This document shows, in pieces, positions 27,704-44,976 of a DNA stretch of 64,000 nt. The notes under the pieces were generated by a model that ran no database searches, was not told the DNA's origin, and was given only the letters and a program-made list of their open reading frames with translations. This stretch comes from Micromonospora sp. NBC_01699. GTDB lineage: Bacteria > Actinomycetota > Actinomycetes > Mycobacteriales > Micromonosporaceae. The DNA is taken from contig NZ_CP109199.1 of assembly GCF_036250065.1 (NCBI RefSeq), forward strand, positions 7,066,001-7,130,000, read 5' to 3'. The position numbers and the translations under genes were made by a program. Within the stretch, counting starts at the first letter, position 1; every line of letters starts with the position of its first letter.

Positions 27704-28003
27704 GACGACCTCCCCATCGGGGAACCCGTCGACCAACCCGCCAGCTCCCCAGGAAACAGGATCACCCATGACCGGACACAACACAGTCATCCATCAGACG
27801 CAATCCCAACCCCAACCAGCCCCCACCCCCACCCCCACCCACCGCGCCCCCACCACCCCCACACGCGTCGATCTAGGGCATATACGTGCTTGTTGATCTC
27901 CGATCACCACCATTCGCCCTAGATCGCGGGCGAAAGGGGTGGCGGGGGGAGGGGGACGCGCGGAGGGGGGAGGGGGGAGGGGGGAAGGGGGGAGGGGTGG
28001 AGG
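27704..28003. other. intergenic region with C-rich/G-rich tracts around a 56-bp element
   Basis: No gene is present. The left part (about 27790-27862) is C-rich with runs such as CCCCCACCCCC. The 56-bp palindrome-ended element is at 27870-27925. The right part (about 27935-28020) is almost pure G with A interruptions and runs into the 3' end of the DEAD-box helicase gene. Confidence 0.75.
27870..27925 (+). repeat. 56-bp dispersed element, copy 1
   Basis: Terminal inverted repeats GATCTAGGGC (27870-27879 and complement 27916-27925) enclose a 36-nt core containing GTGCTTGTTGATCTCC and CACCACCATTC. The reverse complement of 44871-44926 matches it at 52 of 56 positions. Confidence 0.9.
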
Positions 28004-29314
28004 TTAGGCGGGGCGGGGGGTGGTGGGGCGGCGGGGGCGGCGGGTGCGGCCGGAGCTGCGGTGCTGGGCTCGGGGGGAGGCGCCGCCGGGCTGGGCGGGG
28101 GCGGGCTGGGCCGGCTTCGGGGCGGCGACGGTCACCGGTACGCCGGACGGGACGCGGGCACCGGTCACCCGGACCAGTTCCGCATCGCCCGGTCGGACCT
28201 GTGCCGACTCCGGCCGGATCCCGGCGGTTGCCATCAGCCGGGCCATGTCCCGGCGCTGGTCGGGCGTGACCAGCGTGACGACCGCGCCGGACTCGCCGGC
28301 CCTGGCCGTACGACCGCCACGGTGCAGGTAGTCCTTCGCCTCCGTCGGCGGGTCCACGTTCACCACCAGGTCCAGCCCGTCCACGTGGATACCACGGGCC
28401 GCCACGTCGGTGGCGACCAGCGCGGTGACCTGGCCGTTGCGGAACTGCTCCAGCACCCGGGTCCGCTGCGGCTGCGACTTGCCACCGTGCAGGGCGGCGG
28501 CGCGTACGCCACTGGCCAGGAGTTGCCGGGCCAGCCGGTCGGCGCGGTGCTTCGTACCCGTGAACAGGATCGTCCGGCCCTCGCGGGCGGCGATCTGGGT
28601 GGTGGTGGCGGCCTTGTCGGCGGCGTCGAGGTGCAGTACGTGGTGCGTCATCGCGGTGACCGTGGCGGTGCCCGGGTCCACCGAGTGCGACACGGGGTCG
28701 GTCAGGAAGCGACGTACCAGCCGGTCGACGCCACGGTCCAGGGTGGCGGAGAAGAGCATCCGCTGCCCGTTCGGCGCGACCTGCTCCAGCAGCCGGGTGA
28801 CCTGGGGCAGGAAGCCCATGTCGGCCATCTGGTCGGCCTCGTCGAGCACGGTGATGGTGACCTGGTCGAGCCGGCAGTCACCCCGGTTGGTCAGGTCGGC
28901 GAGCCGACCCGGCGTGGCGATGACAACCTCGGCACCGGCGCGCAGGGCGTCCGCCTGGCGTTGCAGGGAGAGGCCGCCGACGACGGTGACACAGCGCAGG
29001 TTGACCGCGCGGGCGTACGGGGCGAGCGCGGTGGTCACCTGCTGGGCCAGTTCGCGGGTCGGGACCAGCACCAGGGCCAGCGGCTGACCGGGGCGGGCCC
29101 GGCGGCCGGCGGTACGGGAGAGCAGCGGGAGCCCGAAGGCGAGCGTCTTGCCGGATCCGGTGCGGCCCCGGCCGAGCACGTCCCGCCCGGCGAGCGAGTC
29201 GGGCAGGGTGGCGGACTGGATCGGGAACGGCTCGGTGATGCCATTCGCCACCAGCGCGGTACGCAGCGCGGGGGCGAGCGGGGCGTCGGTGAACGACGCG
29301 ATGGCATGGGTCAT
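28004..29314 (-). CDS. DEAD-box ATP-dependent RNA helicase, 436 aa
   Basis: All helicase motifs are visible: Q motif region ITEPFPIQSATLPD, Walker A GRTGSGKTLAF, PTRELA, GG, TPGRL, DEAD box VLDEADQMADMGF, SAT, and C-terminal ATDVAARGIHVDG and YLHRGGRTARAG. The tail after about residue 395 is Pro/Arg-rich (PAQPAPAQPGG...RRPRRPTTPRPA), and its last residues are encoded by the G-rich tract. The ATG at 29314 (MTHAIASFTDAPL) with AAGGTG upstream is used; longer in-frame starts lack homology. A cold-shock protein gene lies 192 nt upstream in the same direction, consistent with a cold-induced RNA-unwinding unit. Confidence 0.93.
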   Translation of the reverse strand: MTHAIASFTDAPLAPALRTALVANGITEPFPIQSATLPDSLAGRDVLGRGRTGSGKTLAFGLPLLSRTAGRRARPGQPLALVLVPTRELAQQVTTALAPYARAVNLRCVTVVGGLSLQRQADALRAGAEVVIATPGRLADLTNRGDCRLDQVTITVLDEADQMADMGFLPQVTRLLEQVAPNGQRMLFSATLDRGVDRLVRRFLTDPVSHSVDPGTATVTAMTHHVLHLDAADKAATTTQIAAREGRTILFTGTKHRADRLARQLLASGVRAAALHGGKSQPQRTRVLEQFRNGQVTALVATDVAARGIHVDGLDLVVNVDPPTEAKDYLHRGGRTARAGESGAVVTLVTPDQRRDMARLMATAGIRPESAQVRPGDAELVRVTGARVPSGVPVTVAAPKPAQPAPAQPGGASPRAQHRSSGRTRRPRRPTTPRPA

Positions 29315-29432
29315 GGATAGCACCTTCCTCAAGGCGGCACGTGTCGAGGAAGGTGCCCGTGGGGCACTGGCCGCCGGGAGCCGTGAATGGCTCCACCAGC
29401 GATCGCAAGCACGAACCGATGGGAATACGCGG

Positions 29433-29465
29433 GGCCGGCCCGCGCCAGCATGGCGCGGGCCGGTC
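29433..29465 (-). terminator. hairpin after cspA
   Basis: GGCCGGCCCGCGCC (29433-29446) pairs with 29452-29465 (one G-T wobble) across a 5-nt loop, 42 nt beyond the cold-shock gene. There is no T-run, so it may only partly stop transcription into the helicase gene. Confidence 0.5.
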
Positions 29466-29506
29466 ACGTCACCGCGCCCGGCGGGCGCAGTGGGGTGTAA
29501 CTGGGT

Positions 29507-29710
29507 TCAGATCAGCCGGATGTTCTCGGCCTGCGGGCCCTTCTGGCCCTGGGTCACCTCGAACTCGACCCGCTGGTTCTCGTCCAGGCTCCGGTAGCCG
29601 GAGGACTGGATCGCCGAGAAGTGGGCGAAGACGTCGGCGCCGCCGCCGTCCGGGGTGATGAAGCCGAAGCCCTTGTCAGCGTTGAACCACTTGACGGTGC
29701 CAATTGCCAT
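29507..29710 (-). CDS. cspA: CspA-type cold-shock protein, 67 aa
   Basis: This is a complete cold-shock domain with both RNA-binding motifs: [15 protein letters not shown] (RNP1, KGFGFI) and DVFAHFSAI (RNP2). It ends [14 protein letters not shown]. Its 67-residue length is normal for the family. It is an RNA/single-strand DNA chaperone. The ATG has GGAG eight nt upstream, and the upstream region contains a CCCGCA-CTTT-TGCGGG hairpin (29741-29756), which may be part of a structured 5' leader as in other cold-shock genes. A DEAD-box helicase follows in the same direction. Confidence 0.97.
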
Positions 29711-29842
29711 TTGTTTCGTCTCCTTGACGGAACGATCGGTCCCGCACTTTTGCGGGCCGAAGAGAATCGCCCGCGCCCGGCAGGCGCGGATCGGTGTCGC
29801 CCCCTGGTCGCCCCGCCCGGAGAACTCCGGACATAACAAAGA

Positions 29843-29869
29843 GCGCCTGGGTTACAATCCCGCAGGCGC
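29843..29869 (-). terminator. possible adnB terminator / cspA leader hairpin
   Basis: GCGCCTG (29843-29849) pairs with CAGGCGC (29863-29869); on the minus strand it is followed by TCTTTGTT. It lies 67 nt beyond the adnB stop and upstream of cspA, so it could end the adnAB transcript. Confidence 0.4.
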
Positions 29870-29935
29870 ACACAGAGTCTCTGGGAACCAAAACTGCAAC
29901 TTGGTCAGCCTAGCACGTACCGGCCGGAACATCTA

Positions 29936-32900
29936 TCAAGCCACCGGCAGTTCGGTGATCAGCGCCGCCAGACCGTCGGCGTCGAGCAGGTCGACCGGGC
30001 GCACGGTGACCCCCTCGCGTACGTAGTGGAAGGCGGCCCGGACCTGCTCCAACGGCACGCCGGCCAACTCCGCCCAGGCCAGCCGGTACGCGGCCAGCTG
30101 CACCGCCGCCGCATCCGCCGCCGGCCCCTCGGGGACCCGCCCGGTCTTCCAGTCGATCACGTCGAACCGGCTGCCGGGCCCGCTGAACACCGCGTCCATC
30201 CGCCCCCGGACCACCACCCCGGCGACCACTGTGGCAAATGGCACCTCCACCTCGGTCGGCACCCGGTCGGCCCACTCGCTGGCCAGGAACCGCTGCTGCA
30301 ACTCGACCAGCGCCTCGTCCGGGGCGGCGTCCTCGTCGGCCGCTCCGGGCAGCTCGTCGATGTCGAGCAGCCGGCCGGCCCCGAACCGCTGCTCCAGCCA
30401 GGCGTGGAAGGCGGTCCCCCGGCGGGCGTACGGGTCCGGCCGGGCCGGCATCGGCCGGCGCAGCGTACGGGCCAGCGTGTGCGGATCGCGACGCAACGCC
30501 ACCAGTTGCGATACGGAGAGGTGACCGGGGAGCGTTACCTCGATCGGCCCGACCCGCTGGGCCAGTTCGGCCCGCTCGGCGAGCAGCAGGTCCGCCTCCC
30601 GCCGCCACCGGTCGGGATCCGGATCGGCAACGGGATCACCATCCGGATCGGCGCCAACGTCGGCAGCCGGCTCGGCGGCCGGGCTGGCCGGCGACAGTGG
30701 AGCGGTGTCGGCGGCCATCTGCTGGCGGACCAGGGCCGCCGCGTCGGCCATCGCCGGCCGTCGACCGCCCAGCGGGTCGGCCGGCCACTCGGCCTTCAGC
30801 ACCACCTCGGTGGTCGGGTTGACCGCGTCACCGGCCGGCTCGGGCGCCCAGGCGTCGATCACGTAACCGTCGCCGGCCAGGCAGCGGTCGTACACCTCGC
30901 GCAGGAAGACCGACGGACCGCGAGCGAGCTTCGCCCCGTCTCCCCACCAGTAGCCGGAGCAGAGCAGCAGCCGCCGGGGTCGGGTGACCGCCACGTACGC
31001 GAGCCGGCGCTCCTCGCGTTCGTCGTGTGCCCGCCACCGTTCGGTGAAGGTGGTCAGCGCCTTCATCACGCCCTTCTGGTCGGCCACCTCGTCAAGGTCC
31101 AGCACCGGCAGCCCGTCGGCGTCACCGCGCAGCGGGAACGGCAGCACCCCCAGGCCGAGCAGGTAGTGGTCGGAGTTGCGGACCGGTCCGGGCCAGACGC
31201 CACGGGTCAGCCCGGCGACCGCGACCACGTCCCATTCGAGGCCCTTCGCGGCGTGCGCGGTGACGATCTGCACCGCGCCCTCCATCACCTCCAGCTCGCC
31301 CGGTGCCAGTCCCCGCTCCTCCTCCTCGGCGGCGGCGAGGAAGGCCAGGAAGCCGGAGAGGGAGGCGTTGGTCGAGTCACCGGAGAACCGGGCGGCGACG
31401 TCGCCGAGGGCGTCCAGGTGGCCGCGGGCCAGGCCGGCGTCGCCGCCCCGGCCGTCCGTACCGGCCCGGACGGCGACCTCCACCTCCAGGCCGATGGTCC
31501 GCTCCACGTCCGCGACCAGGTCGGGCAGCGACTGGTCGAGGCGGTGCCGGAGCAGGCCGAGTTCCAGGCCGTACGCGCGCAGCCGGGCATAGCCCTCGGC
31601 CGAGTACAACTGCGGCGGCCCGAGATCGGCCAGCGCCTCGACCAGGGTGGCGTCGTCCAGCCGGTCGGTGCTGATCTCGGGCTCGGCGTCGCCGTCGGCG
31701 CGCGGCAGTTCCCGCCGGGCGGTGGCGATGGCCCGGGAGCGTTTGTGCAACGCCACCAGGTCACGCGGGCCGATCCGCCACCGGGCGCCGGTGAGCAGCC
31801 GGAGCAGGGCGGCACCGTCGGTCGGGTCGGCGAGCACCCGCAGGGTGCAGACCACGTCGCGTACCTCGGGGGTGTCCAGCAGGCCGCCGAGGCCGACCAC
31901 CTCGACCGGCAGTCCCCGCTCGCGCAGGGCCGCCTCGATGGCCGGGATCTGGCTGCGTACCCGGACCAGCACGGCGCTGGTCGGCCGCCGGTCGACCGGG
32001 ATGTGCTCGGGCAGCGCCGACGGCATCCGGGCCGCCCCCCGCCAGGCGGCGAGCAGGCTGTCCGCGATCCAGTCGGCCTCTTCCTCGTACGTGGACAGCA
32101 GCGCGCAGTGCACGGTCCCGCCGGCGGCCCCGCGTGCCGTCCGGCCGGGGATCGGGTCCTTCACCCGCATCGCCGCGGCCAGCTCGCTCACCCGGGCACC
32201 GGCGGCCCGCAGTGGAACCGCGAGCCCGTTGGCCACGCCGAGGATCTCCGGCCGGTTCCGCCAACTCGTGGTGAGCGTCAGGGTACGGGCGGGGCGGCCA
32301 CCGGTGTGGTTGAACTCGGTCGGGAACCGGTCCAGGGTGCCGGCGCTCGCCCCGCGCCAGCCGTAGATGGACTGGCACGGGTCGCCGACGGCGGTGACCG
32401 GGTGCCCGCCGCCGTAGAGCGCCCGCAGCAGCACCACCTGGGCGTGGCTGGTGTCCTGGTACTCGTCGAGCAGCACCACCCGGAAACGCTCGCGTTCGAT
32501 CGCGCCGACCTCCGGGTGGTCCCGGGCCACCCGGGCCGCTCGGGCCATCTGGTCGCCGAAGTCCATCGCCTCGAAGTCGTCCTTGCGCTGGTCGTACGCG
32601 CGGACCAGGGGCATCAGCTTGAGCCGGATCTGCTGGATGGTGAGCGCCTTGCGGACGTCGGCGTAGATCCTGCCCGGCTGGGCGCTGACCTCGGCGTAGA
32701 ACCTGCCCGTCCAGGCGGCGAGCTCGTCCGGGGTGACCAGGTGCTCGGCCAGTTCACCGGCGAGGGCGAGCACCGCGTCGGTGATGGTGCTCGGCATCCG
32801 GTCGACGTCGGACATGTCGCCGTCGTAGGTGCGGACCAGCAGGTCGGCGAGCTGCCACCGGGAGGCTTCGGTGAGCAGCCGGGTGGACGGCTCGTACCCG

Positions 32901-33349
32901 GCCCGCAGCCCGTGCTCGGTGACGATCCGGGCCGCGTACGAGTGGTACGTGGCCACCGTCGGCTCGCCACCGAGCGGGTCGCCGTCGGGGTCCCGACCGT
33001 CCCGCCCGAGCCTGCGCACCAACTGGTCGAGCCGGGTACGGATCCGGTGCGCGAGTTCACCGGCCGCCTTACGGGTGAAGGTGAGCCCGAGCACCTGCTC
33101 GGGTCGGGCGTACCCGTTGGCCACCAGCCAGACCACCCGGGCGGCCATCGTCTCGGTCTTGCCCGAGCCGGCCCCGGCGACGACCAGCAACGGTTCGACG
33201 GGCGCGGCGATGATCGCCGCCTGTTCCCGGGTCGGTGCGTGCTCCATCCGGAGCAGCTTGGCCAGCTCGAACGGGGTGTAGCGCGGGCCGGCGTCGGCTG
33301 CCCGCGTCGGCGGCGGTGCCGGCGCGGCGAACAGCGACGACTGGCTCAA
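29936..33349 (-). CDS. adnB: AdnB subunit of the AdnAB helicase-nuclease, 1137 aa
   Basis: This is a UvrD-type helicase fused to a RecB-like nuclease, equivalent to Rv3201c. Helicase motifs: GAGSGKTETMAARVVWL (about residues 60-76), TFTRKAAGELAHRI, VVLLDEYQDTSHAQ, VGDPCQSIYGWRGA, VTAHAAKGLEWDVVAVAG and RRLAYVAVTRPRR. The C-terminal nuclease carries RFDVIDWKTGRVPEG and VQLAAYRLAWAEL. An acidic Pro/Asp linker (about 925-950) separates the two. AdnAB resects double-strand breaks in actinobacteria. The TTG start at 33349 overlaps the adnA stop (TTGA), with GGAGAGCAGGA upstream, so the two are translationally coupled. The open frame runs further upstream, but that part is an adnA shadow. Confidence 0.93.
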   Translation of the reverse strand: MSQSSLFAAPAPPPTRAADAGPRYTPFELAKLLRMEHAPTREQAAIIAAPVEPLLVVAGAGSGKTETMAARVVWLVANGYARPEQVLGLTFTRKAAGELAHRIRTRLDQLVRRLGRDGRDPDGDPLGGEPTVATYHSYAARIVTEHGLRAGYEPSTRLLTEASRWQLADLLVRTYDGDMSDVDRMPSTITDAVLALAGELAEHLVTPDELAAWTGRFYAEVSAQPGRIYADVRKALTIQQIRLKLMPLVRAYDQRKDDFEAMDFGDQMARAARVARDHPEVGAIERERFRVVLLDEYQDTSHAQVVLLRALYGGGHPVTAVGDPCQSIYGWRGASAGTLDRFPTEFNHTGGRPARTLTLTTSWRNRPEILGVANGLAVPLRAAGARVSELAAAMRVKDPIPGRTARGAAGGTVHCALLSTYEEEADWIADSLLAAWRGAARMPSALPEHIPVDRRPTSAVLVRVRSQIPAIEAALRERGLPVEVVGLGGLLDTPEVRDVVCTLRVLADPTDGAALLRLLTGARWRIGPRDLVALHKRSRAIATARRELPRADGDAEPEISTDRLDDATLVEALADLGPPQLYSAEGYARLRAYGLELGLLRHRLDQSLPDLVADVERTIGLEVEVAVRAGTDGRGGDAGLARGHLDALGDVAARFSGDSTNASLSGFLAFLAAAEEEERGLAPGELEVMEGAVQIVTAHAAKGLEWDVVAVAGLTRGVWPGPVRNSDHYLLGLGVLPFPLRGDADGLPVLDLDEVADQKGVMKALTTFTERWRAHDEREERRLAYVAVTRPRRLLLCSGYWWGDGAKLARGPSVFLREVYDRCLAGDGYVIDAWAPEPAGDAVNPTTEVVLKAEWPADPLGGRRPAMADAAALVRQQMAADTAPLSPASPAAEPAADVGADPDGDPVADPDPDRWRREADLLLAERAELAQRVGPIEVTLPGHLSVSQLVALRRDPHTLARTLRRPMPARPDPYARRGTAFHAWLEQRFGAGRLLDIDELPGAADEDAAPDEALVELQQRFLASEWADRVPTEVEVPFATVVAGVVVRGRMDAVFSGPGSRFDVIDWKTGRVPEGPAADAAAVQLAAYRLAWAELAGVPLEQVRAAFHYVREGVTVRPVDLLDADGLAALITELPVA

Positions 33350-36300
33350 TCCTGCTCTCCACGCTGGGTCGGCGGCGTCATCCCCGGCCGCCGGGCGGGC
33401 GGTTCGACCACCTGGCGGCCCTTGCCGGAGACCGGGCAGCTGGTCCGGACCGGGCAGACCCGGCACTTGCTGTTGGCGACCGCGGCGAAGGTCGAAGCGG
33501 CCATCGTATCGGCGGTGCGTCGGACCATCGCCCGCGCCCAGCCGGCCTCGTCGGCCGACCCGACCGGAGCCTGGCCCTGTTCCTTGGCGTCCTTGGTGCC
33601 GGTGCCGAGCTGCACCAGGGCCGCTCCGCCGGAGGAGTCGCCGAACTCGGCGAACGCGCCCGCCTCGACCGCCGCCTGGTACGCGCCGAGCTGCGGGTGT
33701 TCGGCCAGCTCGGTGCCGGTGACCGCGGTGGACTTGCCGGTCTTGAGGTCGATCACCACCAGCCGGCCGTCGGCGTCGACCTCCAGCCGGTCCACCCGCC
33801 CGGTCAGCTCGATCGGCCGGACGGGGTCGTCCAGCCGGACCGCGAACTCGTGCTCGATGGCGAGCAGCCGACGCGGGTTGCTGGCCAGCCAGCGGAGCAG
33901 CTTGTCGACCATCGCCTCGGCCCGCTGCTGCTCCGGACCGGCCATCCACTGCGCGGCCAGGTCGATCACGTCGAACCGGGCGGTGACGTACTCGATGAGT
34001 TGGGAGCGGTCGGCGCTGGCGTCCTCGGCCAGCATGGCGGCGGCGTGCACCAGGTTGCCCACGCCCTGCGCACCGCTGGCCGGGGCCGCGCCGCCGTGCC
34101 GTTCCAGCAGCCAGCGCAGGCTGCACCGGAGCGCACTTTCCATGGTGGACGGGGTGACCCGGACCGGTTCGCCCTCGTCGACCAGCGGCCGGTCGTCGGA
34201 GAGCGCCCGCAGGCCCCACCAGTCGTCCGGGTGGGCGCCGGGCACACCGGCTACGGCGAGCCGGGCGAGCTGGGCCGCAGCCGCCTGCCGCCGCTGGTCG
34301 GACGCGGCCGGGTCGACCACCACCGTACGCAGCTCCGCCACGAGCGCCGGCAGCGTGAGCGCCCTCGGTGCCCGCTCCACCGGCAACTCCCCCGGCTCCT
34401 CCCCCGCCTGCGATGCCTCCGCCTGCGATGCCTCCGCTGCCTTTGCTACCGCCGCCGGTTGCGGCACCACCGGTTGCGGCACTGCCGTCGCCTGCGGAGC
34501 GGGGCCGTTCGAGCCCTGCGGAACCGGGCCGTTCGAGCCCTGCGGAACCGGGCCGTTCGAGCCCTGCGGAACCGGGCCGTTCGAGCCCTGCGGAGCGGGG
34601 CCCGGCGGGCCGTCCGGGGCGGGCGACGGGGAAGGATCCGGGGCGGACGAACCGACCGGGCGGGAGCCGGGGTCGGCCGGAGGGGCCAGCTCGTAGAGGA
34701 ACCGACTCGGCTGCTCCTCGTGGTCCATCCCGCCGACCGCCGCCGAGGCGACCGCGCTGACCAGCAGCCGGCGCCGGGCCCGGGTGACCGCCACGTAGAA
34801 CAGTCGGCGCTCCTCGTCCAGCAACGCCGAGGTCTGCCCGACCAGGCTGGCCGCCAGCCCGGTGCCGTCGGACCGGCCGGCGAGCACCTCGACCAGCCGC
34901 TCCGAGCCGAGCAGGCTGCCGCGCAGCCGCAGGTCCGGCCAGGTCCCCTCCTGTACGCCGGCCACCGCGACCAGGTCCCATTCGAGTCCCTTGGCCGCGT
35001 GTGCGGTCAGCAGCCGGACCGCCTCGCCGGGATCGGCGCTCGGCGCCAGGGTGTCGGCCGGCAACTGCTGACCCAGCACGTGGTCGAGGAACACCTCGGT
35101 ACGGGCACCCGGCAGCCGGTCGACAAACCGGGCGGCGGCGTCGAAGAGCACCACTATCGCGTCCAGGTCCCGGTCGGCGGCGGCAGCCCGCCAGCGGGGC
35201 GCGTTCTCGCCCTCGCCGGTGGCGGTCCGGCCCCGGCCGATCGCGCCCGACCAGCGTTCCGCCAGCCCGCTGTCCTGCCAGATCGCCCAGAGCACCTGTT
35301 CGGCGGTGGCGCCGGGGGCGGCCGCGGCCGTTCGAGCGGTGGCGAGCAGCCCGGCGACCGTCTGGGCCGGTGCCGCCCAGCGTCGTTCGATCGCGGCCAG
35401 TTCGGCCGGGTCGCGCAGCGCCTCGACCAGCAGTTCCCCCGAGGGTCGGCGGTCACCGGCGGCCAGCGCGAGTGCGCGCAGGCCCTGCCGCAGCCGCCGT
35501 TGCGCCAGCGGGTCGGCCCCGCCGAGCGGCGAGTGCAGCAGCGCGACCGCCGCCTCCTCGTCCAGCCGGCTCGGCTCCAGCGCGCAGCGCAGCAGCAGCA
35601 ACAGCGGCGCCACCGCCGGTTGCAGGTGCAGCGGCAGATCCTCGGCGTGTACGACGGTCGGCACCCCGGCGGCCTGGAGCGCCCGCTGGAGCGAGGGCAG
35701 TTGCCGGGGCGCCGAGCGGACCAGCACCGCCATCCGGGACCAGGGCATCCCGTCGATCAGGTGGGCGGCGCGCAGCGCGTGTGCCAGGTACGCCGCCTCG
35801 CCGGTTGCGGAACGGAACGTACGGACCTCGACGGTGCCGGGGTCGGTGTCCGGTAGTGGTGCCAGTTGCCGGTGCGCGATCGGTCCGCGCAGCCGGCGGG
35901 ACACCCGGGCGGCGGCACCGAGCAGACCGGCACCGCCCCGGTAACCGGTGCCCAGCAGGACGGTTCGGGCCGGCGCGCCGGAGGCGGTACGGAACCGGTG
36001 TGGGAAGGCGGCGACGCCGGCCGGGTCGGCACCCCGGAACGCGTACGTGGAGGAGTCCGGGTCGGCGAACGCAACCAGTGGCTTGCCACCTCCCGCCACC
36101 AGGTTCAGCAGTTCGAGCTGGGCCGGGTCGGTGTCGGCGAGTTCGTCGACGTAGACGTACGTCAACCGGCGGCGCTCGGCGGCCAGCAGTTCGGGGTCGT
36201 CGGCGAGCAGTCCGCTGGCGGCTCGGACCAGTTCCGCCGGGTCGTACGCGATCGAGCCCCGGCCGGTCGCGTCGCGCAGCGCCAGTACGGCCACGTACTC

Positions 36301-37578: not shown

Positions 37579-37582
37579 CGAC

Positions 37583-38428
37583 TCACCCTTCACGAGTGGT
37601 GGAAGCGGCCTGCTGGTCGGCCCCCGCCTGGGCGATGGCCGTCTCCTGGAGCGCTTCCTGTTCCGCGGCGAGCGCGGCGTCTGCGTCGATGATATGCCCG
37701 ACGGCGGTGGTCACATCATCGGTGACCAGTATCAATTCGAGATCGGCCGCACCGATCTTGCCGGTCGCGGCGAGGGTGTCCCGCAGCCAGGCGAGCAGCC
37801 CACTCCAGTACGCCTCGCCCATCAGTACGACCGGGAAGCGGGTGACCTTGCCGGTCTGGACCAGGGTCAGCGCCTCGAACAGTTCGTCCATGGTGCCGAA
37901 CCCGCCGGGCAGTACGACGAACGCCTGGGCGTACTTGACGAACATGGTCTTGCGGGCGAAGAAGTAGCGGAAGTCGATCGCCATGTCGACCCAGTCGTTG
38001 ATGCCCTGCTCGAACGGCAGTTCGATGCCGAGCCCGACGGAGAGACCACCGGCGTCGGTGGCGCCCCGGTTCGCCGCCTCCATCACGCCGGGGCCACCGC
38101 CGGTGATGACCGCGTACCCGGCGCGGGCCAGGGCGGCACCGAGTTCCTCGGCGAGCCGGCACTCGTCGCTGTCGGGCAGGCTGCGGGCCGAGCCGAAGAC
38201 GCTCACCGCGGGCGGCAGGTCGGCCAGGGTGTCGAAGCCCTCGACGAACTCGGAGAGGATCCGCAGCGCCCGCCAGGCGTCCTTGGTCTTCCAGTCGCCC
38301 CGGCTGCGCGAGTCGAGTAGGCGCTGGTCGGCCGTACTGAACGGGATGGCGTCGCGGCGCAGGGTGACCCCGCCGCCGTGCCGTTCCGGCCCCCGGACCC
38401 TGCCGGTGCGTCCCTTGCTGTGGCTCAT
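37583..38428 (-). CDS. LOG-family protein (TIGR00730 type), longer paralogue, 281 aa
   Basis: This is a second member of the LOG family, with PGGFGTMDELFEALTLVQTGKVTRFPVVLMG (about residues 170-200), GGGPGVMEAANRGA and a 70-residue N-terminal extension (RTGRVRGPERHGGGVTLRRDAIPF...). It is more similar to the COG1611 subgroup with long N-termini than to its neighbour, so the pair is probably not a recent duplication. Same catalytic expectation: phosphoribohydrolase acting on nucleoside monophosphates. The C-terminus is Ala/Gln-rich. It begins the two-gene unit; the start is ATG 38428. Confidence 0.88.
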   Translation of the reverse strand: MSHSKGRTGRVRGPERHGGGVTLRRDAIPFSTADQRLLDSRSRGDWKTKDAWRALRILSEFVEGFDTLADLPPAVSVFGSARSLPDSDECRLAEELGAALARAGYAVITGGGPGVMEAANRGATDAGGLSVGLGIELPFEQGINDWVDMAIDFRYFFARKTMFVKYAQAFVVLPGGFGTMDELFEALTLVQTGKVTRFPVVLMGEAYWSGLLAWLRDTLAATGKIGAADLELILVTDDVTTAVGHIIDADAALAAEQEALQETAIAQAGADQQAASTTREG

Positions 38429-38538
38429 GCGTCCACGGTAGTGGGACGGCCCGGCCGCGTCGGCAACTCACCCCGGCTGTCGGAAAAGTGCGCGCGCCGG
38501 GTGCAACCCGGCGGAGTCCGGATGCGTCTTACTATTCA

Positions 38539-38551
38539 CATACCGGGTATG
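38539..38551 (+). promoter_or_regulatory. CATACCGGGTATG palindrome
   Basis: CATACC-G-GGTATG lies 48 nt before the GTG of the small gene at 38599 and just downstream of TACTAT (38530-38535), a possible -10. The same 13-mer occurs upstream of the subtilase gene at 44478-44490. Confidence 0.55.
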
Positions 38552-38598
38552 CACGGGGTCCGGCAGCGCCGCCGGACACCTTTGGGGGGAGGCGCACC

Positions 38599-38781
38599 GT
38601 GATCAACAACAACGAGATCATCCGGCTCCGGCGACAGATGCACCAGCGAATCCGTGCCGTGGTGGCCGAACGCCGCGTGGCCCGCCAGCAGGATCCGGCC
38701 GACGACACGGGGTTCGACCATTCGACCGTGGCGGCGGAAACACCCGGCGGTGCCGGCGACGGTTCGCTGATCGGCGGTTAG
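38599..38781 (+). CDS. hypothetical small protein, 60 aa
   Basis: GTG at 38599 follows GGGGGGAGG by 6 nt, a very strong binding site. The N-terminal half is a charged helix with basic repeats (IIRLRRQMHQRIRAVVAERRVARQQ); the C-terminal half is Asp/Gly/Ala-rich and probably unstructured. No membrane segment or cysteine is seen, and no family is recognised. It is monocistronic, ends at a GC-rich hairpin and converges on dapE. Its promoter carries a 13-bp palindrome also found before the secreted subtilase gene, so the two may belong to one regulon. Confidence 0.7.
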   Translation: MINNNEIIRLRRQMHQRIRAVVAERRVARQQDPADDTGFDHSTVAAETPGGAGDGSLIGG

Positions 38782-38784
38782 GCC

Positions 38785-38808
38785 GGCCGGGCCCGGACCG
38801 GCCCGGCC
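38785..38808. terminator. hairpin after the 60-aa gene
   Basis: GGCCGGGCC (38785-38793) pairs with 38800-38808 across a 6-nt loop, four bases after the stop codon and between convergent genes. There is no T-run. Confidence 0.5.
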
Positions 38809-38827
38809 AGCCCGCCGATCCGCCCGA

Positions 38828-39901
38828 TCAGGCCGGCGCGAGCCAACGGTGCAGGGTGGCCGCCCCGTCGCGGATCTTCCCGATCTCCACGTGCTCGTCC
38901 GGCGCGTGCGCCAGGTTCGGGTCGCCCGGTCCGAAGTTCAGCGCCGGGATGCCGAGCGCGGCGAACCGGGCCACGTCGGTCCAGCCCAGCTTCGCCACCG
39001 GCTCCTCACCGACCGCCGTCAGGAACTCCCGGGCCGGCGCCGCGCCCAGACCGGGCAGCGCCCCGGCGGCCACGTCCACCAGATTCAGCTCCAGACCCGC
39101 AAACACCTCGCGTACGTGTGCCTCCGCCTCGGCCGGCGACCGGTCCGGCGCGAACCGGTAGTTGACCTCGATCTCGCACCGGTCGGGCACCACGTTCCCG
39201 GCGACTCCGCCGTGGATGCCGACCGCGTTCAGCCCCTCCCGGTAGACGCAGCCGTCGATGGTGACCGTCCGCGCCTGATAGGCCGCCAACCGGTCGAGCG
39301 CCTCGCCGGCCGCATGGATGGCGTTCACCCCGCGCCAGGATCGGGCCGAGTGGGCCCGCCGGCCGGTGGTCGTCACGACCGCCCGCAGGGTGCCCTGGCA
39401 GCCGGCCTCGACCACGCCGTACGTCGGTTCGAGCAGCACCGCGAAGTCGGCCCTGAGCCACTCCGGATGCTCCCGCGCGACCAGGGTCAGCCCGTTGTAG
39501 CGGCTGTCGATCTCCTCCGCCTCGTAGAACAGGTACGTCACGTCGTACCGGGGATCGGCCAGGCTCACGGCCAGGTGCAGGGCGTACGCGACGCCGGACT
39601 TCATGTCCGAGGTGCCGCAGCCGTAGATCAGATCCCCCTCCCGGGTCGACGGGAAGTTGTTGTTCAACGGCACCGTGTCCAGGTGCCCGGCCAGCACCAC
39701 CCGCTGCGAACGACCCAGGTCGGTACGGGCCATCACCGTGTTCTGGTGCCGCCGCACGTCCAGGTGGGGTACCGAGCGCAGCACCTCCTCGACGTGGTGC
39801 GCGATCTCCTTCTCGTTGAGCGAGACGGACTCGATGTCGACCAGGGCACGGGTCAACGCGACCGGATCGGCCAACACCTCGGGGGTCAGCGGGTTCTCCA
39901 T
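38828..39901 (-). CDS. dapE: succinyl-diaminopimelate desuccinylase, 357 aa
   Basis: This is an M20-family metallohydrolase that releases succinate from N-succinyl-LL-diaminopimelate in lysine and cell-wall precursor synthesis. Metal-binding elements: [14 protein letters not shown] (His/Asp), [13 protein letters not shown] (bridging Asp), [13 protein letters not shown] (catalytic Glu pair) and [17 protein letters not shown] (terminal His). The length is normal for the actinobacterial type. ATG 39901 ([16 protein letters not shown]) is chosen; longer in-frame starts run into dapD territory. It is divergent from dapD, the enzyme two steps earlier, with a 127-nt shared promoter region in which I see no clear operator. 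Confidence 0.95.
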
Positions 39902-40028
39902 GTCCGGCACGGTACCGTCAGGAATGTGCGGGCGCGGACCGAGCGGGCGACCTGTGCCGTCCACGACTCGCGAGCCGCGTTTCACCATTACGGCCGAGCC
40001 CGCGTTCCCGAACGAAGAGGATGACCAA

Positions 40029-40988
40029 GTGACGACCGCGCAGCCCGCCTGGGGTATCGGACTGGCCACCATCACCGCCGACGACCAGGTGCTCGACACC
40101 TGGTACCCGACCGGCAAGCTGGGCCTGGGCGCCCTGCCGCTGGTCCCCGGCGAGGAGCAGGCGGACGTACTCGACCTGCCGCCGGGAGCGGTCGGCGAAC
40201 GGGCACTGCCCGGTCTGCGTACGGTGGTGTTGATCACGGAAATCGGCTCGCTGGCCGACCCGATCAAGGACGCCCCCGACGCGTACCTCCGGTTGCACCT
40301 GCTCTCCCACCGCCTGGTGCGGCCCAACGAGCTCAACCTCGACGGCATCTTCGGGCAGTTGGCGAACGTGGCCTGGACCTCGGCCGGGCCGTGCCCGCCG
40401 GACCGGGTGGACGAGCTGCGGGTGATCGAACGGGCCGCCGGCCGCCACCTCGCCGTGTACGGGGTGGACAAGTTCCCCCGGATGACCGACTACGTGGTGC
40501 CGTCCGGGGTCCGGATCGCCGACGCCGACCGGGTCCGGCTCGGCGCCCACCTGGCGCCCGGCACCACCGTCATGCACGAGGGCTTCTGCAACTTCAACGC
40601 CGGCACCCTGGGCACCTCGATGGTGGAGGGCCGGATCGTGGCCGGGGTGGTGGTCGGCGACGGCTCCGACGTCGGTGCCGGTGCCTCGATCATGGGTACG
40701 CTCTCCGGCGGCGGCACCGAGAAGGTGCGCATCGGCGAGCGCAGCCTGCTCGGCGCGAACGCCGGGATCGGCATCTCGCTCGGCGACGACTGCGTGGTCG
40801 AGGCGGGTTGTTACATCACCGCCGGCTCCAAGATCAGCCTGCCGGACGGGACGGTGGTCAAGGCCCGCGAACTCTCCGGCGTGGCCGGGCTGCTGTTCTG
40901 GCGCAACTCGGTGACCGGCGCCCTGGAGGCCCGGCCCCGCACCGGGCACGGCATCGAACTCAACGCCGCCCTGCACGCGAACGACTGA
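40029..40988 (+). CDS. dapD: tetrahydrodipicolinate N-succinyltransferase, actinobacterial type, 319 aa
   Basis: This is a left-handed β-helix acyltransferase. The hexapeptide-repeat region spans about residues 155-285 ([86 protein letters not shown]). It transfers succinyl from succinyl-CoA to tetrahydrodipicolinate. The long N-terminal domain identifies the actinobacterial DapD type. The GTG start has GAGGATGACC upstream. It is divergent from dapE and followed by a strong convergent hairpin. Confidence 0.95.
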
Positions 40989-40998
40989 CCCCGGACGC

Positions 40999-41044
40999 GG
41001 TACCGCCGGTGCCGACTCGTCCTGAGCCGGCACCGGCGGGTACC
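40999..41044. terminator. hairpin between dapD and subtilase gene ends
   Basis: The stem of about 16 bp with a one-base bulge (GGTACCGCCGGTGCCG at 40999-41014, complement at 41027-41044) has a 12-nt loop, between two convergent genes. It probably acts in both directions. Confidence 0.65.
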
Positions 41045-41048
41045 CGTG

Positions 41049-44000
41049 CTACTTCAGCTTGTAGGCGCGGATCACCTGCTGGGTGACGGTGTTACCGGCC
41101 GAGTCGGTCGCCTTCGCCCGCAGCGACACGTACTTCGCCCCGGCGGGGTGCCGTACGCCGGCCACCCAACCGGACCTCGTCGACCGGACGTCCGCGTCCC
41201 GCCAGGTACGCCCGTCGTCGTACGACACCTCGACGGTCAGCCGCCGCACCTGCGCGCCCGGCGCACCGGGCTGCCGCTGCACGGTCACCGGGATGTCGAA
41301 CTGCCGACCGGCCGGGGCCGCGTTGGTCACGTCGAGCTTCGGCGCGTACCGGATCGCCATCGCCGGCAGCTTGACGTACTCGTCGCCCGGCACCTCCCCG
41401 GAGCGGAACGTCCACGCCACCTCGGTCGAGGTGGCCAGCTCCGCGACGGTCCGGGTCGCCGACACGGCCAACCGGTAGTCGGCCCGGCCGGCCGGCACCT
41501 CGAACCCACCGAAGCCCGGATCCGGGGCCTCGCCGACCAGCTCGCCGTTGCGGTAGAGCGCGGTCCGGGCGGTGGTGGTGAGCGAACCGCCACCGTGCCC
41601 GGCGGCGTCGCCGTAGACCGGCAGACTGACCCCGATGAAGTTGCCCCACCGCACGAGACCCTCGTCCGGCCAACGCGAATCGGGGAACAACGGCCCGTAC
41701 GGCGCCTCGTTCCACACCTGCTGGTAGTCCCGCCCGGCCCGGTACGCCGTCGGCGGCGACGCCAACACCGCCTGGGTCAGCGGCCAGCCCTCGTCGTCGG
41801 GGACGCTGAACTCCAACGTCGATTCCCAGCGCACACCGGCGTCGGTGCCGAGGTACTCGACCCGCTGCCCCGGTACGTCCACCGGCAGGACGATCGCCCA
41901 ACCGCCGGTGTTCTCCACGAAGGCTGGGAACAGCACGCGGTACGCGTCCTGCCCGTTCAGGCTGCCCCGGAGGTCGTTGCGCACCGTGGCCAGGTCCCGG
42001 TCCCGGTAGTGGCGGACGTACCCGTTCGGGAACCGACCGGGGAAGAGGTCGGCGACCGCGTACAGGTAGGGGCTGGCGGCGAAGTCGTTCTCCGGACCCG
42101 GCTCCGCCCACTGGCTGCCGATCTGGGAGCTGAAGCCCGCCGTCGCCGTCCCGCTGCCGATCGGACCGGCGGTGAGCCCCTCGAACGAGTCGGCCAGCAG
42201 GGTGGTACCGAAGCTGCCGTCGTCGGTCACCCAGTTGGCCGAGAGGTCGATCAGCGCCGGTGCGGCGGACCGCTTCGGCACCGTCACCTGGACCGGTCGG
42301 GCCCGACGGGCGTCGAGCGTGAGAGTCGTGTTCCGGTCGACGGTCAGCTCCGGCTGCACCAGGATGGTGGCGTCGTACTCCTCCTCGGCCCGCTCACGGA
42401 AGATGTTGGTGTTGAGCCCGTACCGCCCCTTCGGCAGGCGGGTGGTCAGGGTGCCGTCCTCCTCGTACACGCCGGCGAAGAGGAAGTAGTCGAGCCCGAC
42501 CAGCAGACTGTTGTACTCCACGGCCGGGTTGCCGGCCTGGTCGATGTGGGTGAGCGTCAGGTCGTAGCTCTCGACCTCCTTGTGCACGCCGACCGGCGTG
42601 GTCACCACGGTCGCCCCGGCGGTGGCGGTGAGCCGACCGGACCAGTAGCCGTCCGCGCTGGCCACGCTGGTGTTCGCGGTCACGGTGACCGCCGCCTGGC
42701 CGCCGGCCGGCACGGTCACCCGGTCCGCGCTGGTGCGGAACAGGCCGGCCGGTGCCGTAACCCCGTCCGGGCCGCTCGCCTGGAGAGCCAGCTCCAGGGT
42801 CAGCTCGGCGGTGCCGGGGTTGTGGTAGGTGACGGTCCGGGTGACCGCCGTGTCGTCCGTGTGCGGCCAGCTGGTGCGACCGAACGAGACACTGGCCGGG
42901 TCGGTGGTCACCGGCTGGGTGATGGCGCGGGCCACGTCGACCCGGCCGGCTCCCTGCTGGTACGCGGTGAGCGTCGGGTCGGGCTTGGCCGAGGCCATCA
43001 GCGTCGCCTTGAACTGTGCCGCACTCCAGTCCGGGTGCTGCTGGCCGAGCAGTGCGACCGCTCCGACCACGTGCGGGGTTGCCATCGAGGTGCCGGAGGC
43101 GCTCACGTAGTGCTCGCCCACCGGCGTGCCGAGTTCGGTGCCGGCGCCCTTGGCGGCGACGATCTCGACACCGGGCGCGGTGATGTCCGGCTTCACGGCG
43201 TCGTCACCGACTCGCGGGCCCCGGCTGGAGAAGTCGGCGAGCTTGTCGTCGCGGTCCACCGCGCCGACGGTCAGGGCGGCGTCGGCGCTGCCCGGCGAGC
43301 CGACCGAGGCGTCCGTGTAGTCGTTGCCGGCGGCAATGACGAAGAGCGTGCCGGTCTGCGCGGTGAGGGTGTTGACGGCCTCTTCGAGCGGGTCGATCTC
43401 GGGTGTGTCGTAGCCGCCGAGGCTGATGTTGACCACGTCCGCCTGCTTGTCGACGGCCGCCCACTGGAGTCCGGCCAGGATCGCCGACTCGGTGCAGCCG
43501 TAGAGCTCGCAGACCTTGCCGGAGACCAGGGTGGCGTCGGGCGCGACGCCCCGGTACTTGCCGCCGGAGGCGGCGCCACTACCGGCGATGATCGAGGCGA
43601 CGTGGGTGCCGTGTCCGACGATGTCGCCGGGCTCGGCCTCCTCGCTGAAGTTCCGCGCCTCGGCGACCCGGCCCACCAGGTCGGGGTGGTTCACGTCGAC
43701 CCCGGTGTCGAGCACCGCGACGGTGACCCCCCGACCGGTGAAACCGGCCTGGTACGCGGCCGGGGCGCCGATCTGCGCCACGCTGTGGTCGAGGTTCAGC
43801 TGCCGCTTGCCGTCCAGCCAGATCTTCTCGATGCCACCGGCGGTGTCGGCGCGGGCGGCGCCGCCCTCACCGGTGGTGACGCCGGCCCAGAAGGCGCCGG
43901 CCCCGGCCTTGGTGGCCGCCACCGCGGCACCGCCGATCGCCGGCAGTTCCCGGGTGACCCGGGCGCCGACACCGCGTAGCGTGCCGGCGGCGGAGGCGAC

Positions 44001-44414
44001 GGCCCCGGCACGGTAGGTCACGATCAGCGGCAGGTTGTCCCGCGCGGCGTCGTGGTAGCCGGCCTGCACCAGCCCGGTGACGTTGAACAGGCGCCGGTCG
44101 AGTTGTCCCGACCGGATCAGCCGCTGGGCGTCCCGGGGAACCACGTACAGCCCGTCCGGCTCGTGGTTGGCGACGAACTGCATCTGCTCGCGCCCCTTGC
44201 CCGGCTGCACCGACCCGGTACGGGCCTCGGGCGACGCGAGCGTGATCCGGTCACCGGTCAACAGGGTCACGGTGACCGGCTTGGCCTGCGCCCGCGCGGT
44301 CGGTGCGGCCGGCTGCGGCTTCGCCGCCGTTGGTGCGGCCAGTCCGGCCGAGCCGGTGCCGAGCACCAACCCGATCCCCAGTGCGACCGCGGTCAATCTC
44401 CTCGGTACGTGCAA
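41049..44414 (-). CDS. secreted subtilisin-like (S8) serine protease, 1121 aa
   Basis: The catalytic triad is D236 (VAVLDTGVDVNHPDL), H268 (VGHGTHVASI) and S443 (SASGTSMATPHVVGA), with the oxyanion Asn in FVIAAGNDY. The signal peptide is residues 1-27 (basic start, ALGIGLVLGTGSAGLAAP). A propeptide covers about 45-190. After the protease domain (to about 500) come some 600 residues of β-rich domains with no membrane anchor, ending GNTVTQQVIRAYKLK. It is probably an extracellular degradative enzyme. The TTG at 44414 is preferred because GGGGAGG lies 6 nt upstream; GTG 44417 and ATG 44441 are alternatives. A 17-bp palindrome lies 62 nt upstream. Confidence 0.9.
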   Translation of the reverse strand: MHVPRRLTAVALGIGLVLGTGSAGLAAPTAAKPQPAAPTARAQAKPVTVTLLTGDRITLASPEARTGSVQPGKGREQMQFVANHEPDGLYVVPRDAQRLIRSGQLDRRLFNVTGLVQAGYHDAARDNLPLIVTYRAGAVASAAGTLRGVGARVTRELPAIGGAAVAATKAGAGAFWAGVTTGEGGAARADTAGGIEKIWLDGKRQLNLDHSVAQIGAPAAYQAGFTGRGVTVAVLDTGVDVNHPDLVGRVAEARNFSEEAEPGDIVGHGTHVASIIAGSGAASGGKYRGVAPDATLVSGKVCELYGCTESAILAGLQWAAVDKQADVVNISLGGYDTPEIDPLEEAVNTLTAQTGTLFVIAAGNDYTDASVGSPGSADAALTVGAVDRDDKLADFSSRGPRVGDDAVKPDITAPGVEIVAAKGAGTELGTPVGEHYVSASGTSMATPHVVGAVALLGQQHPDWSAAQFKATLMASAKPDPTLTAYQQGAGRVDVARAITQPVTTDPASVSFGRTSWPHTDDTAVTRTVTYHNPGTAELTLELALQASGPDGVTAPAGLFRTSADRVTVPAGGQAAVTVTANTSVASADGYWSGRLTATAGATVVTTPVGVHKEVESYDLTLTHIDQAGNPAVEYNSLLVGLDYFLFAGVYEEDGTLTTRLPKGRYGLNTNIFRERAEEEYDATILVQPELTVDRNTTLTLDARRARPVQVTVPKRSAAPALIDLSANWVTDDGSFGTTLLADSFEGLTAGPIGSGTATAGFSSQIGSQWAEPGPENDFAASPYLYAVADLFPGRFPNGYVRHYRDRDLATVRNDLRGSLNGQDAYRVLFPAFVENTGGWAIVLPVDVPGQRVEYLGTDAGVRWESTLEFSVPDDEGWPLTQAVLASPPTAYRAGRDYQQVWNEAPYGPLFPDSRWPDEGLVRWGNFIGVSLPVYGDAAGHGGGSLTTTARTALYRNGELVGEAPDPGFGGFEVPAGRADYRLAVSATRTVAELATSTEVAWTFRSGEVPGDEYVKLPAMAIRYAPKLDVTNAAPAGRQFDIPVTVQRQPGAPGAQVRRLTVEVSYDDGRTWRDADVRSTRSGWVAGVRHPAGAKYVSLRAKATDSAGNTVTQQVIRAYKLK

Positions 44415-44475
44415 CACAAACCTCCCCGTTCGACATCTCATGGATGCCAGGTCCTGCATGGACACGGGTCAGCAT

Positions 44476-44492
44476 TGCATACCGGGTATGCA
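44476..44492 (-). promoter_or_regulatory. 17-bp palindrome upstream of the subtilase gene
   Basis: TGCATACC-G-GGTATGCA is a perfect palindrome around a central G. Its 13-bp core is identical to the site at 38539-38551. It lies 62-78 nt before the preferred start and is a likely regulator-binding site. Confidence 0.6.
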
Positions 44493-44976
44493 TCTGATAC
44501 CCCTGAGACTATCTAGAATTCGACCAATCAATCGCTTGTGATCATTCCCGACGCTCCACCCACATTCGACAGGGTCGATCATCTGGCGGGCCAATCGGCG
44601 CCGGTCGCCCCCTCGGAAGAGGGACCATGACCTCACCCAAGCATGGACGCTCGCGGGTGACCCCTACCTCGCCGACGATCCAGATTCCGTCACGAACACA
44701 CAGCGGCCAACACTCCCGCCAAAGCACCTACCACCGGAGCACATCAACACAAGCAGCCCCACAAAAGGGACCGCCCCGACAACTACCGACCAAGCCACTC
44801 GACTCGATCCACAACAGCAACACCCACCCCCCTCCCCACACCCCCTCCCCCCAGGCCCCCCTCCCCCGCCGATCTAGGGCGAATGGTGGTGGCTGGAGAT
44901 CAACAAGCACGTATTTGCCCTAGATCCACGAGCAGGGGGCCCTGGGGGGAGGAGGGAGGGGGCGGGGGGCGGGGGG
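44493..44976. other. intergenic region with 56-bp element and C/G tracts
   Basis: I see no convincing gene; an open frame at 44627-44923 has ordinary codon use for non-coding DNA and ends in the repeat. The region is less GC-rich than its neighbours up to about 44815, then C-rich (44820-44870), then holds the 56-bp element (44871-44926), then G-rich (44935-45015), running into the GGDEF/EAL gene end. Confidence 0.6.
44871..44926 (-). repeat. 56-bp dispersed element, copy 2
   Basis: GATCTAGGGC ends (44871-44880, complement 44917-44926) bound a core that is the reverse complement of copy 1 (27870-27925), with 52 of 56 positions identical. One difference is a single A/T change near one end; the other three are adjacent in the centre. 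Confidence 0.9.

What the first reader, a model, noticed from the sequence alone, without database searches (positions are those of the whole stretch)
27870..44926. Near-identical 56-bp palindrome-ended element present twice, in opposite orientation
27870-27925 and the reverse complement of 44871-44926 agree at 52 of 56 positions, including the GATCTAGGGC terminal inverted repeats and the asymmetric core (GTGCTTGTTGATCTCC...CACCACCATTC). Conservation of a non-coding, non-symmetric core between intergenic regions 17 kb apart suggests a dispersed element with a function or a means of spreading, not just a terminator. Three of the four differences are adjacent, as if replaced together.
Basis: seen in the sequence. 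Interest (0 to 1): 0.72.

Follow-up and report, generated by a model that had tools for sequence, protein, structure and literature searches.

The report
Palindromes ringed by one-sided mutation
The repeated 56-base palindrome is one of about 92 copies placed just after genes in this soil actinobacterium's genome, and the DNA on both sides of nearly every copy, including the ends of neighbouring genes, has been rewritten in a strand-specific way that looks like a local mutation hotspot.

Summary
The two 56-mers match at 52/56 positions and are 2 of about 92 copies in the genome. Exact matches in a named collection are all Micromonosporaceae. Copies lie 3' of genes, at a median of 60 bp past facing stop codons; no called gene spans one.

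The surprise is the flanks. Around the 91 copies examined, the strand reading toward the element is C-rich and G-poor for about 250 bp on both sides. Fourfold sites go from C .46/G .45 to C .81/G .07. The noncoding gradient barely depends on gene direction. It is absent at 61 non-family hairpins and present at three other palindrome families, with few copies each.

Polarised against two relatives, fourfold G>C is 7/8, 18/50 and 16/73 in the first three 100-bp bins, against about 8% far away. G002 shows the reciprocal at its own elements. Facing stops are TAA in 62/103, against 12/330 elsewhere. Family f34 shows a weaker skew, without the TAA shift.

Best reading: mobile REP-like palindromes that are centres of strand-biased hypermutation, enzyme unknown. 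Selection on composition is the main rival.

The parts
27870..27925 (+). FAM1 palindromic element, copy 1 (GATCTAGGGC ... GCCCTAGATC)
44871..44926 (-). FAM1 palindromic element, copy 2, opposite orientation
27800..27869 (.). C-rich, G-poor left flank of copy 1
   Evidence: family-wide gradient
27926..28003 (.). G-rich right flank of copy 1, running to the stop codon of the minus-strand gene 28004-29467
44805..44870 (.). C-rich left flank of copy 2
44927..44976 (.). G-rich right flank of copy 2, running to the stop codon of the minus-strand gene 44977-48084
28004..29467 (-). gene (DEAD-box helicase-like by eye; no family search run) whose 3' end faces copy 1; tail ...RRPRRPTTPRPA
   Evidence: label recalled
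44977..48084 (-). gene (GGDEF/EAL-like by eye; no family search run) whose 3' end faces copy 2; tail ...PHPRTPTPTPTQRA
   Evidence: label recalled
15607..15665 (+). FAM2 palindrome (TTGATCATGAAGTTAGCG...CGCTAACTTCATGATCAA) with the same kind of C|G flanks

Best explanation
The 56-mer (FAM1) belongs to a set of dispersed, non-coding, REP-like palindrome families whose termini carry GATC (CGTYGATC... in several). Shown: the copies lie just 3' of genes, copy number differs between relatives, and the copies sit in a zone of about +-250 bp where the strand reading toward the element has lost G (to C and A) and gained C. Inferred: this is a local, strand-asymmetric hypermutation. Proposed mechanism, untested: a sequence-specific event at the palindrome ends (a nick or processed hairpin) starts error-prone DNA synthesis running outward on both sides for roughly 100-250 nt. 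That strand would gain G and T in place of C and A, and repeated patches would saturate fourfold sites. As hairpins the elements may also act as bidirectional terminators. They spread by an unidentified route; no Y1 transposase or reverse transcriptase was detected in this genome.
For: About 92 copies. Gradient at 91 fetched copies; skew >0.1 over 200 bp in 179 of 182 flanks. The noncoding gradient is alike on toward- and away-gene sides and in divergent settings, and similar on both sides relative to an assumed fork direction. Skew at most .08 at 61, 52 and 46 non-family intergenic hairpins of three genomes, but clear at FAM1-4. Polarised fourfold G>C 7/8, 18/50, 16/73, 12/136, 28/431, 104/1309 with distance, versus C>G 0/14, 1/60, 6/75, 9/146, 27/395, 76/1265. 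Control hairpins flat: G>C 13/176, 19/311, 17/315; C>G 18/226, 14/286, 34/381. Reciprocal result at six G002 FAM2-4 sites: G>C 6/13, 9/26, 4/51, far 44/672. Codon positions 1+2 change at .31 per codon (100 codons) within 100 bp of FAM1.056 (1135 codons) at control hairpins. TAA in 62 of 103 facing stops, 12 of 330 elsewhere. G>A far exceeds G>T (31 v 2 at 0-150 bp). At five of ten sites both relatives lack element and tract. Weaker version in family f34.
Against: No enzyme or intermediate was identified. On the inward strand C>T and C>G are somewhat below background near the element, which added mutation alone does not give; it needs strong back-mutation, biased repair or selection. Fourfold skew at 100-140 bp is stronger in genes reading toward the element (.79, n=870) than away (.43, n=83). 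Polarised data come from only 10 FAM1 sites and 3 genomes, with 8 ancestral G sites in the nearest bin. G002-branch C>G is also raised near the sites (3/14, 9/60, 11/75 v 96/1265) and A>G too (16); I take this as wrong polarity where G001 is not ancestral, unproven. G002 keeps a decayed FAM1 at one site and a skewed scar at another, so gain versus loss is unsure there. G001's two FAM1 sites gave no usable polarity. In several other species the skew is weak beyond 60 bp. In f34 only 20 of 36 flanks exceed 0.1 and facing stops are TGA 26, TAG 1, so no TAA shift.
Confidence: 0.6

Rival explanations
1. Selection, not mutation: C-rich, G-poor transcripts running into the hairpin are favoured, for example as Rho-loading (rut-like) 3' regions of a bidirectional terminator.
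For: Copies sit 3' of genes, 40 of 91 between convergent genes; the C-tract often starts right after the stop codon (by eye); fourfold skew is stronger in genes reading toward the element; C loss is below background near the element; the hairpins are stable (z -3.5 to -4.3).
Against: The noncoding gradient is as strong on the side where the next gene reads away and in 15 divergent settings; non-family hairpins lack it; amino-acid-position changes rise about five-fold; the rates would need strong selection on dozens of sites at each of about 92 loci (inference).
Confidence: 0.22
2. Homeologous gene conversion: copies recombine with one another and overwrite flanks with donor C/G-rich sequence.
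For: The window copies with their flanks match other copies over roughly 95-280 bp at 71-87%; 3 of 10 sites carry a different palindrome family in G002, as if cassettes were exchanged; inner arms assort independently.
Against: Converted sites should mirror donor composition, where A and T are similar, yet G>A far exceeds G>T (31 v 2); the changes counted in genes are point differences in aligned codons; left and right skew of a copy do not correlate (r=0.01).
Confidence: 0.1
3. Outward promoters or R-loops: transcription starts in the palindrome and runs outward, so transcription-linked damage makes the outward strand G/T-rich.
For: The net outward gain of G and T resembles transcription-linked strand asymmetry as recalled from other systems.
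Against: No promoter-like motif common to the families was seen by eye (no promoter scan was run); such asymmetries are usually weak in bacteria (recalled).
Confidence: 0.1
4. Insertion preference: the elements land in places already skewed C|G.
For: A different family occupies the same gap in G002 at 3 of 10 sites.
Against: At sites 71, 72, 76, 77 and 79 neither relative has an element and flip scores are 6-20 against 22-35 in G000; substitutions inside genes are placed on the G000 branch.
Confidence: 0.05

Closest known systems
REP/BIME repeats and RAYT (TnpA-REP)
   Same: Tens of short intergenic palindromes, imperfect inside, near gene 3' ends, copy number varying between relatives.
   Different: No Y1 transposase detected in G000-G002; foot is CGTY/GATC rather than the GTAG/GTGG type (recalled); several distinct families; wide substitution halo.
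MITEs and other short palindromic repeats (ERIC, Correia; recalled)
   Same: Near-invariant inverted termini with a variable interior, presence/absence between relatives.
   Different: No parent transposase identified (only Y1 and RVT_1 were searched); no target duplication could be defined; none recalled with a strand-asymmetric halo.
Bidirectional transcription terminators
   Same: Stable hairpin past stop codons, often between convergent genes.
   Different: No U-tract; other intergenic hairpins of the same genome lack the skew, and at two sites a classical terminator lies between gene and element.
Targeted hypermutation: DGRs, AID/APOBEC clusters, fungal RIP (recalled)
   Same: Local, directional, strand-biased substitutions spreading from a defined sequence.
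   Different: No reverse transcriptase found in G000; raised in every neighbour class; two-sided with fixed polarity about a palindrome; not adenine-specific.

Membership tests
REP/RAYT | many short intergenic palindromic copies | tested here: met
REP/RAYT | cognate Y1 (TnpA-REP) transposase in the genome | tested here: not met
   PF01797 0 matches in G000, G001, G002; found in 6 of 41 genomes searched and in 5 of 14 control genomes
REP/RAYT | conserved GTAG/GTGG-type tetranucleotide at the hairpin foot (recalled) | tested here: not met
   foot is GATC, often preceded by CGTY
MITE | terminal inverted repeats | tested here: met
   positions 1-8 and 48-56 invariant in 91 copies collected with up to 3 substitutions allowed
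MITE | target-site duplication and parent transposase | tested here: inconclusive
   gaps at matching sites not alignable across the element; only Y1 and RVT_1 were searched
Intrinsic terminator | stable hairpin 3' of genes | tested here: met
Intrinsic terminator | U-tract after the hairpin | tested here: not met
   G-rich sequence follows in both window copies and family-wide
Rho-dependent terminator | C-rich tract tied to the side of inward transcription | tested here: not met
   same noncoding tract on away-gene sides; fourfold skew is however stronger in toward genes
Rho-dependent terminator | termination depends on Rho | not testable with these tools
   needs RNA data
Diversity-generating or other RT-driven mutagenesis | reverse transcriptase | tested here: not met
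   PF00078 0 matches in G000, G002, G005 (2 in G001, 3 in G003, 7 in G028); found in 3 of 14 control genomes
Known Rfam family | match at gathering score | tested here: not met
   only a tRNA at 1226-1299 in the whole window

The most novel reading that the evidence does not exclude
A widespread class of actinobacterial palindromic repeats are sequence-addressed mutators. Each copy repeatedly directs outward, strand-biased error-prone DNA synthesis over about 250 bp, rewriting 3' ends of genes (TGA to TAA, Pro/Thr/His-rich protein tails) at dozens of loci, so the repeats act as a distributed local-hypermutation system unlike DGRs, AID or RIP.
Probability: 0.45. Interest if true: 0.95.

Novelty: new variant of a known kind. 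Interest (0 to 1): 0.85.

Why it matters
If mutational, this would be a bacterial process that makes specific short repeats into strand-biased mutation hotspots, changing neighbouring proteins and stop codons at dozens of sites per genome, and would give a new handle on error-prone repair in actinobacteria. Even if selective, a two-sided composition rule around one class of palindrome, hardly dependent on gene direction in noncoding DNA, is unexplained. It is directly testable in culturable soil bacteria.

Tried and rejected
Tried without result: paper searches for the sequences and for palindromic repeats in Micromonosporaceae/Salinispora and for related phenomena. Only listings and abstract starts were seen and no paper was opened. 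None of the listed titles describes these repeats; one search listed 15 of 39 papers and one search listed 10 of 25. Plasmid and phage collections: no match to the 72-base query. Rfam: no match. Neighbour-context test for a deaminase-like motif: G>C and G>A are raised roughly 2.5- to 10-fold in every neighbour class. Arm matching does not predict skew (.474 v .449).

Rejected: RAYT mobilisation (no Y1_Tnp detected); RT-driven mutagenesis (no RVT_1 in G000); a single duplication (about 92 copies); a general property of gene 3' ends (328 gene ends over 500 bp from any element: C .48/G .41) or of hairpins; a strong fork-direction effect (similar on both sides, slightly stronger downstream; origin near coordinate 0 was assumed); inner-arm pairing as a constraint in this genome (28 of 91 matched, 25.7 expected), although the arms do pair in one MAG (.96 v .67 shuffled, 0 of 500). 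Specific pairing between left and right flanks: small excess in the first 5 bases only (.716 v .637).

Caveats: genes were called with a self-made codon-usage caller, not an annotation. Polarised counts used 10 of 10 FAM1, 7 of 11 FAM2-4 and 41 of 59 control points with aligned codons. G002-branch counts have no denominators of their own. One of 92 own copies (8273943) was not fetched. One search printed 80 of its 88 stretches; all 88 are listed and entered. An earlier count said 11 of 19 junctions hold FAM1; the count is 10. With wider windows and lower thresholds the mirror control is not empty (33 v 6 at threshold 20, 20 v 2 at 25, 17 v 0 at 30 in G000).
Full report
OBSERVATION. The window is bases 7,066,001-7,130,000 of an 8,280,328-bp single contig. 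GATCTAGGGC-N-GCCCTAGATC occurs 87 times there, with no match to the reversed pattern. With an off-centre GATC as orientation mark, 92 places have 0 or 1 mismatch; 91 were fetched with about 3 kb on each side.

FAMILY (FAM1). Across 91 copies, positions 1-8 and 48-56 are invariant, the core GATCTC is nearly so, and the arms (15-19 with 38-42) come from a small vocabulary (ACGTG, GGTGG, GGGGG, ACAGG and a few rare words) used on either side. In this genome left and right arms assort independently: 28 of 91 matched, 25.7 expected. In the MAG CR_Sed_300A_bin.20 (24 copies; apparently G028, another genus) the arms differ in sequence but pair (.96 v .67 in shuffles, 0 of 500). An exact scan of a named genome collection gave 88 stretches, all titled Micromonospora or Micromonosporaceae bacterium (the window's own genome may be left out there). 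Among 61 genomes examined, 5 carry exact FAM1: G000 87, G001 18, G002 12, G028 26, G032 2.

PLACEMENT. A self-made gene caller puts 40 of 91 copies between convergent genes, 36 between co-directional genes, 14 between divergent genes and 1 unresolved; no called gene spans a copy. Of 116 gene ends facing a copy, 84 lie 30-110 bp away (median 60.5); 14 called frames run into the element, 9 of them ending on its own TAG. The window copies lie 78 and 50 bp past the stop codon of a minus-strand gene.

THE FLANKS. Nearly every copy has, by eye, a C-rich tract on its left and a G-rich tract on its right (L113 is a weak case). On the strand that has the element to its right, C/G is about .63/.17 next to the element.64/.10 at 40-60 bp, and reaches baseline by about 300 bp; the other side mirrors this. 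At fourfold-degenerate sites of genes reading toward the element, C/G is .81/.07 (0-100 bp).72/.18.53/.37.47/.43 and then about .46/.45. Skew exceeds 0.1 on both sides in 88 of 91 copies. In 464 kb of contiguous sequence, 19 C-left/G-right junctions were found against 0 in mirror image; 10 hold FAM1, 4 FAM2, and 4 of the other 5 hold FAM3 or FAM4 palindromes, one of them decayed. A second statistic with wider windows gives 33 v 6, 20 v 2 and 17 v 0 at rising thresholds.

NOT EXPLAINED BY TRANSCRIPTION OR BY HAIRPINS IN GENERAL. The noncoding profile is nearly the same on the side where a gene reads inward, on the side where the next gene reads away (34 co-directional sites), and at 15 divergent sites. 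In coding DNA at 100-140 bp the skew is weaker in genes reading away (.43, n=83) than toward (.79, n=870), which is against a purely direction-blind process. Non-family intergenic hairpins (61 in G000, 52 in G001, 46 in G002) have skew of at most .08 in every bin; FAM2 (5 copies), FAM3 (3) and FAM4 (3) of G000 have the same kind of skew as FAM1. Gene ends more than 500 bp from any element are C .48/G .41 in their last 100 bp (328 genes); those within 200 bp are .82/.11 (26 genes).

SUBSTITUTIONS. Ten of the 91 FAM1 sites could be compared with matching gaps in fetched parts of G002 and nine in G001. With G001=G002 taken as ancestral, G000-branch G>C at fourfold sites is 7/8, 18/50, 16/73, 12/136, 28/431 and 104/1309 with distance, and C>G is 0/14, 1/60, 6/75, 9/146, 27/395 and 76/1265. 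G002-branch G>C is roughly flat (2, 5, 6, 10, 38, 89 on the same denominators), but G002-branch C>G is raised near the sites (3, 9, 11, 15, 40, 96), which I take as wrong polarity where G001 is not ancestral. At 59 control hairpins (41 with aligned codons) both directions are at background; at 11 FAM2-4 points (7 aligned) G>C is 2/6, 9/34, 11/53. Changes at codon positions 1+2 on the G000 branch are .31 per codon at 0-100 bp for FAM1.104 for FAM2-4 and .056 for controls. At all sites within 150 bp G>C, G>A, T>C and A>C rise and C>T and C>G fall; G>A is 31 against G>T 2. G>C and G>A are raised in every neighbour class. The reciprocal test at six FAM2-4 sites of G002 gives G002-branch G>C 6/13, 9/26 and 4/51, against 44/672 far away, and C>G 0/36, 2/67 and 2/52. 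G001's two FAM1 sites were uninformative because both relatives have elements there. Stop codons facing FAM1 are TAA 62, TAG 24, TGA 17; elsewhere TGA 259, TAG 59, TAA 12; some of the TAG are the element's own. The last 25 residues of facing genes are enriched in His, Thr and Pro and poor in Val, Gly, Glu and Asp.

TURNOVER. At the ten sites FAM1 is intact in G001 at 2 of 9 (sites 75, 78) and in G002 at 0 of 10. In G002 one site (70, the window's copy 1) holds a decayed FAM1, one (73) a skewed scar without palindrome, and three (74, 75, 78) hold FAM4-like, FAM2 and FAM3. Sites 71, 72, 76, 77 and 79 have no family motif in either relative, and their C|G flip scores are 6-20 against 22-35 in G000. 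Of eight G002 skew flips without a perfect stem, three are decayed FAM1, FAM3 and FAM4 elements by eye. Exact FAM2 is present 20 times in G000, 34 in G002, 0 in G001 and in 58 other genomes.

WIDER DISTRIBUTION. Other species' FAM1 loci show the skew more weakly: to about 60 bp in several, to 150-200 bp in M. endophytica (9 copies) and strain U21 (16). In 200 kb of G005 there are 4 flips against 0 mirror at threshold 30, 3 of them at a further family (TTGATCAAGAGGTTT-like); G003 has 5 v 0 only at threshold 20, two of them with CGTTGATCAAGG; G024 and G048 show no excess over their mirrors. By eye the termini of FAM2, FAM3 and these two resemble one another (GATC WWG NRGTT). A palindrome pattern built on that is found in 18 of 296 class-wide genomes, with many copies in some genomes of families f34 and f46 as well as the window's family. 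At 18 f34 copies the same placement and a weaker skew appear: fourfold C/G .61/.32 at 0-100 bp, baseline by 300 bp, 20 of 36 flanks above 0.1, and no TAA shift (facing stops TGA 26, TAG 1). Distant gene ends in those loci are .47/.45. Two f46 copies are too few to judge.

MECHANISM. Shown: family-specific, two-sided, strand-asymmetric substitution centred on the palindrome and tied to the lineage that carries it. Inferred: mutational origin, because it hardly depends on gene direction in noncoding DNA, raises amino-acid-position change, turns G to A far more than to T, and would need implausibly strong selection at dozens of sites per locus. Proposed and untested: nicking or hairpin processing at the termini with error-prone outward synthesis. 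Against: C loss is below background near elements, toward-genes are more skewed than away-genes, no enzyme was found (Y1_Tnp not detected; RVT_1 not detected), and the polarised data set is small. Selection for C-rich inward transcripts remains the main rival.

Noticed in passing
window 15607-15665: A FAM2 palindrome (59 bp; with short flanks, predicted RNA fold -48.5 kcal/mol, z -8.3) with the same kind of C|G flanks between convergent genes; 20 exact copies in the genome.
   Followed up: yes
G000:C1:7190310 (L187), 7502076 (L202), 7528298 (L203): Two further palindrome families, FAM3 (GATCTTGCA[C/G]TT...) and FAM4 (GAGAAAGAGTG.CTATCC-like), also with skewed flanks.
   Followed up: partly
G000:C1:6466131-6466188 and 3618980-3619037: Some FAM2 copies carry an inner core (TTTGATCTCTATTT, TTCGATCTCTGTTT) like the FAM1 core GATCTCTA, suggesting exchange or common origin of interiors.
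   Followed up: no
fourfold sites more than 1 kb from elements, G000/G002: Background G<->C transversions (about .06-.08) are several times commoner than G>A and C>T transitions (about .02-.03) in this genus, an unusual spectrum that may reflect its mismatch repair.
   Followed up: no
G191, G201, G249, G133 (family f34); G132 (f46): Genomes of other actinobacterial families hold 17-50 copies of GATCTTGGAGTT.../GATCATGCAGTT... palindromes of 56-66 bp.
   Followed up: partly
G000:C1:4226788-5286602: No FAM1 copy with 0 or 1 mismatch lies in this 1.06 Mb stretch, roughly opposite coordinate 0.
   Followed up: no
L166 and L171 (G000:C1:7143239, 7396214): A classical GC-hairpin-plus-T terminator lies between the gene's stop codon and the FAM1 copy (by eye).
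   Followed up: no
window 1226-1299: tRNA gene on the minus strand.
   Followed up: no
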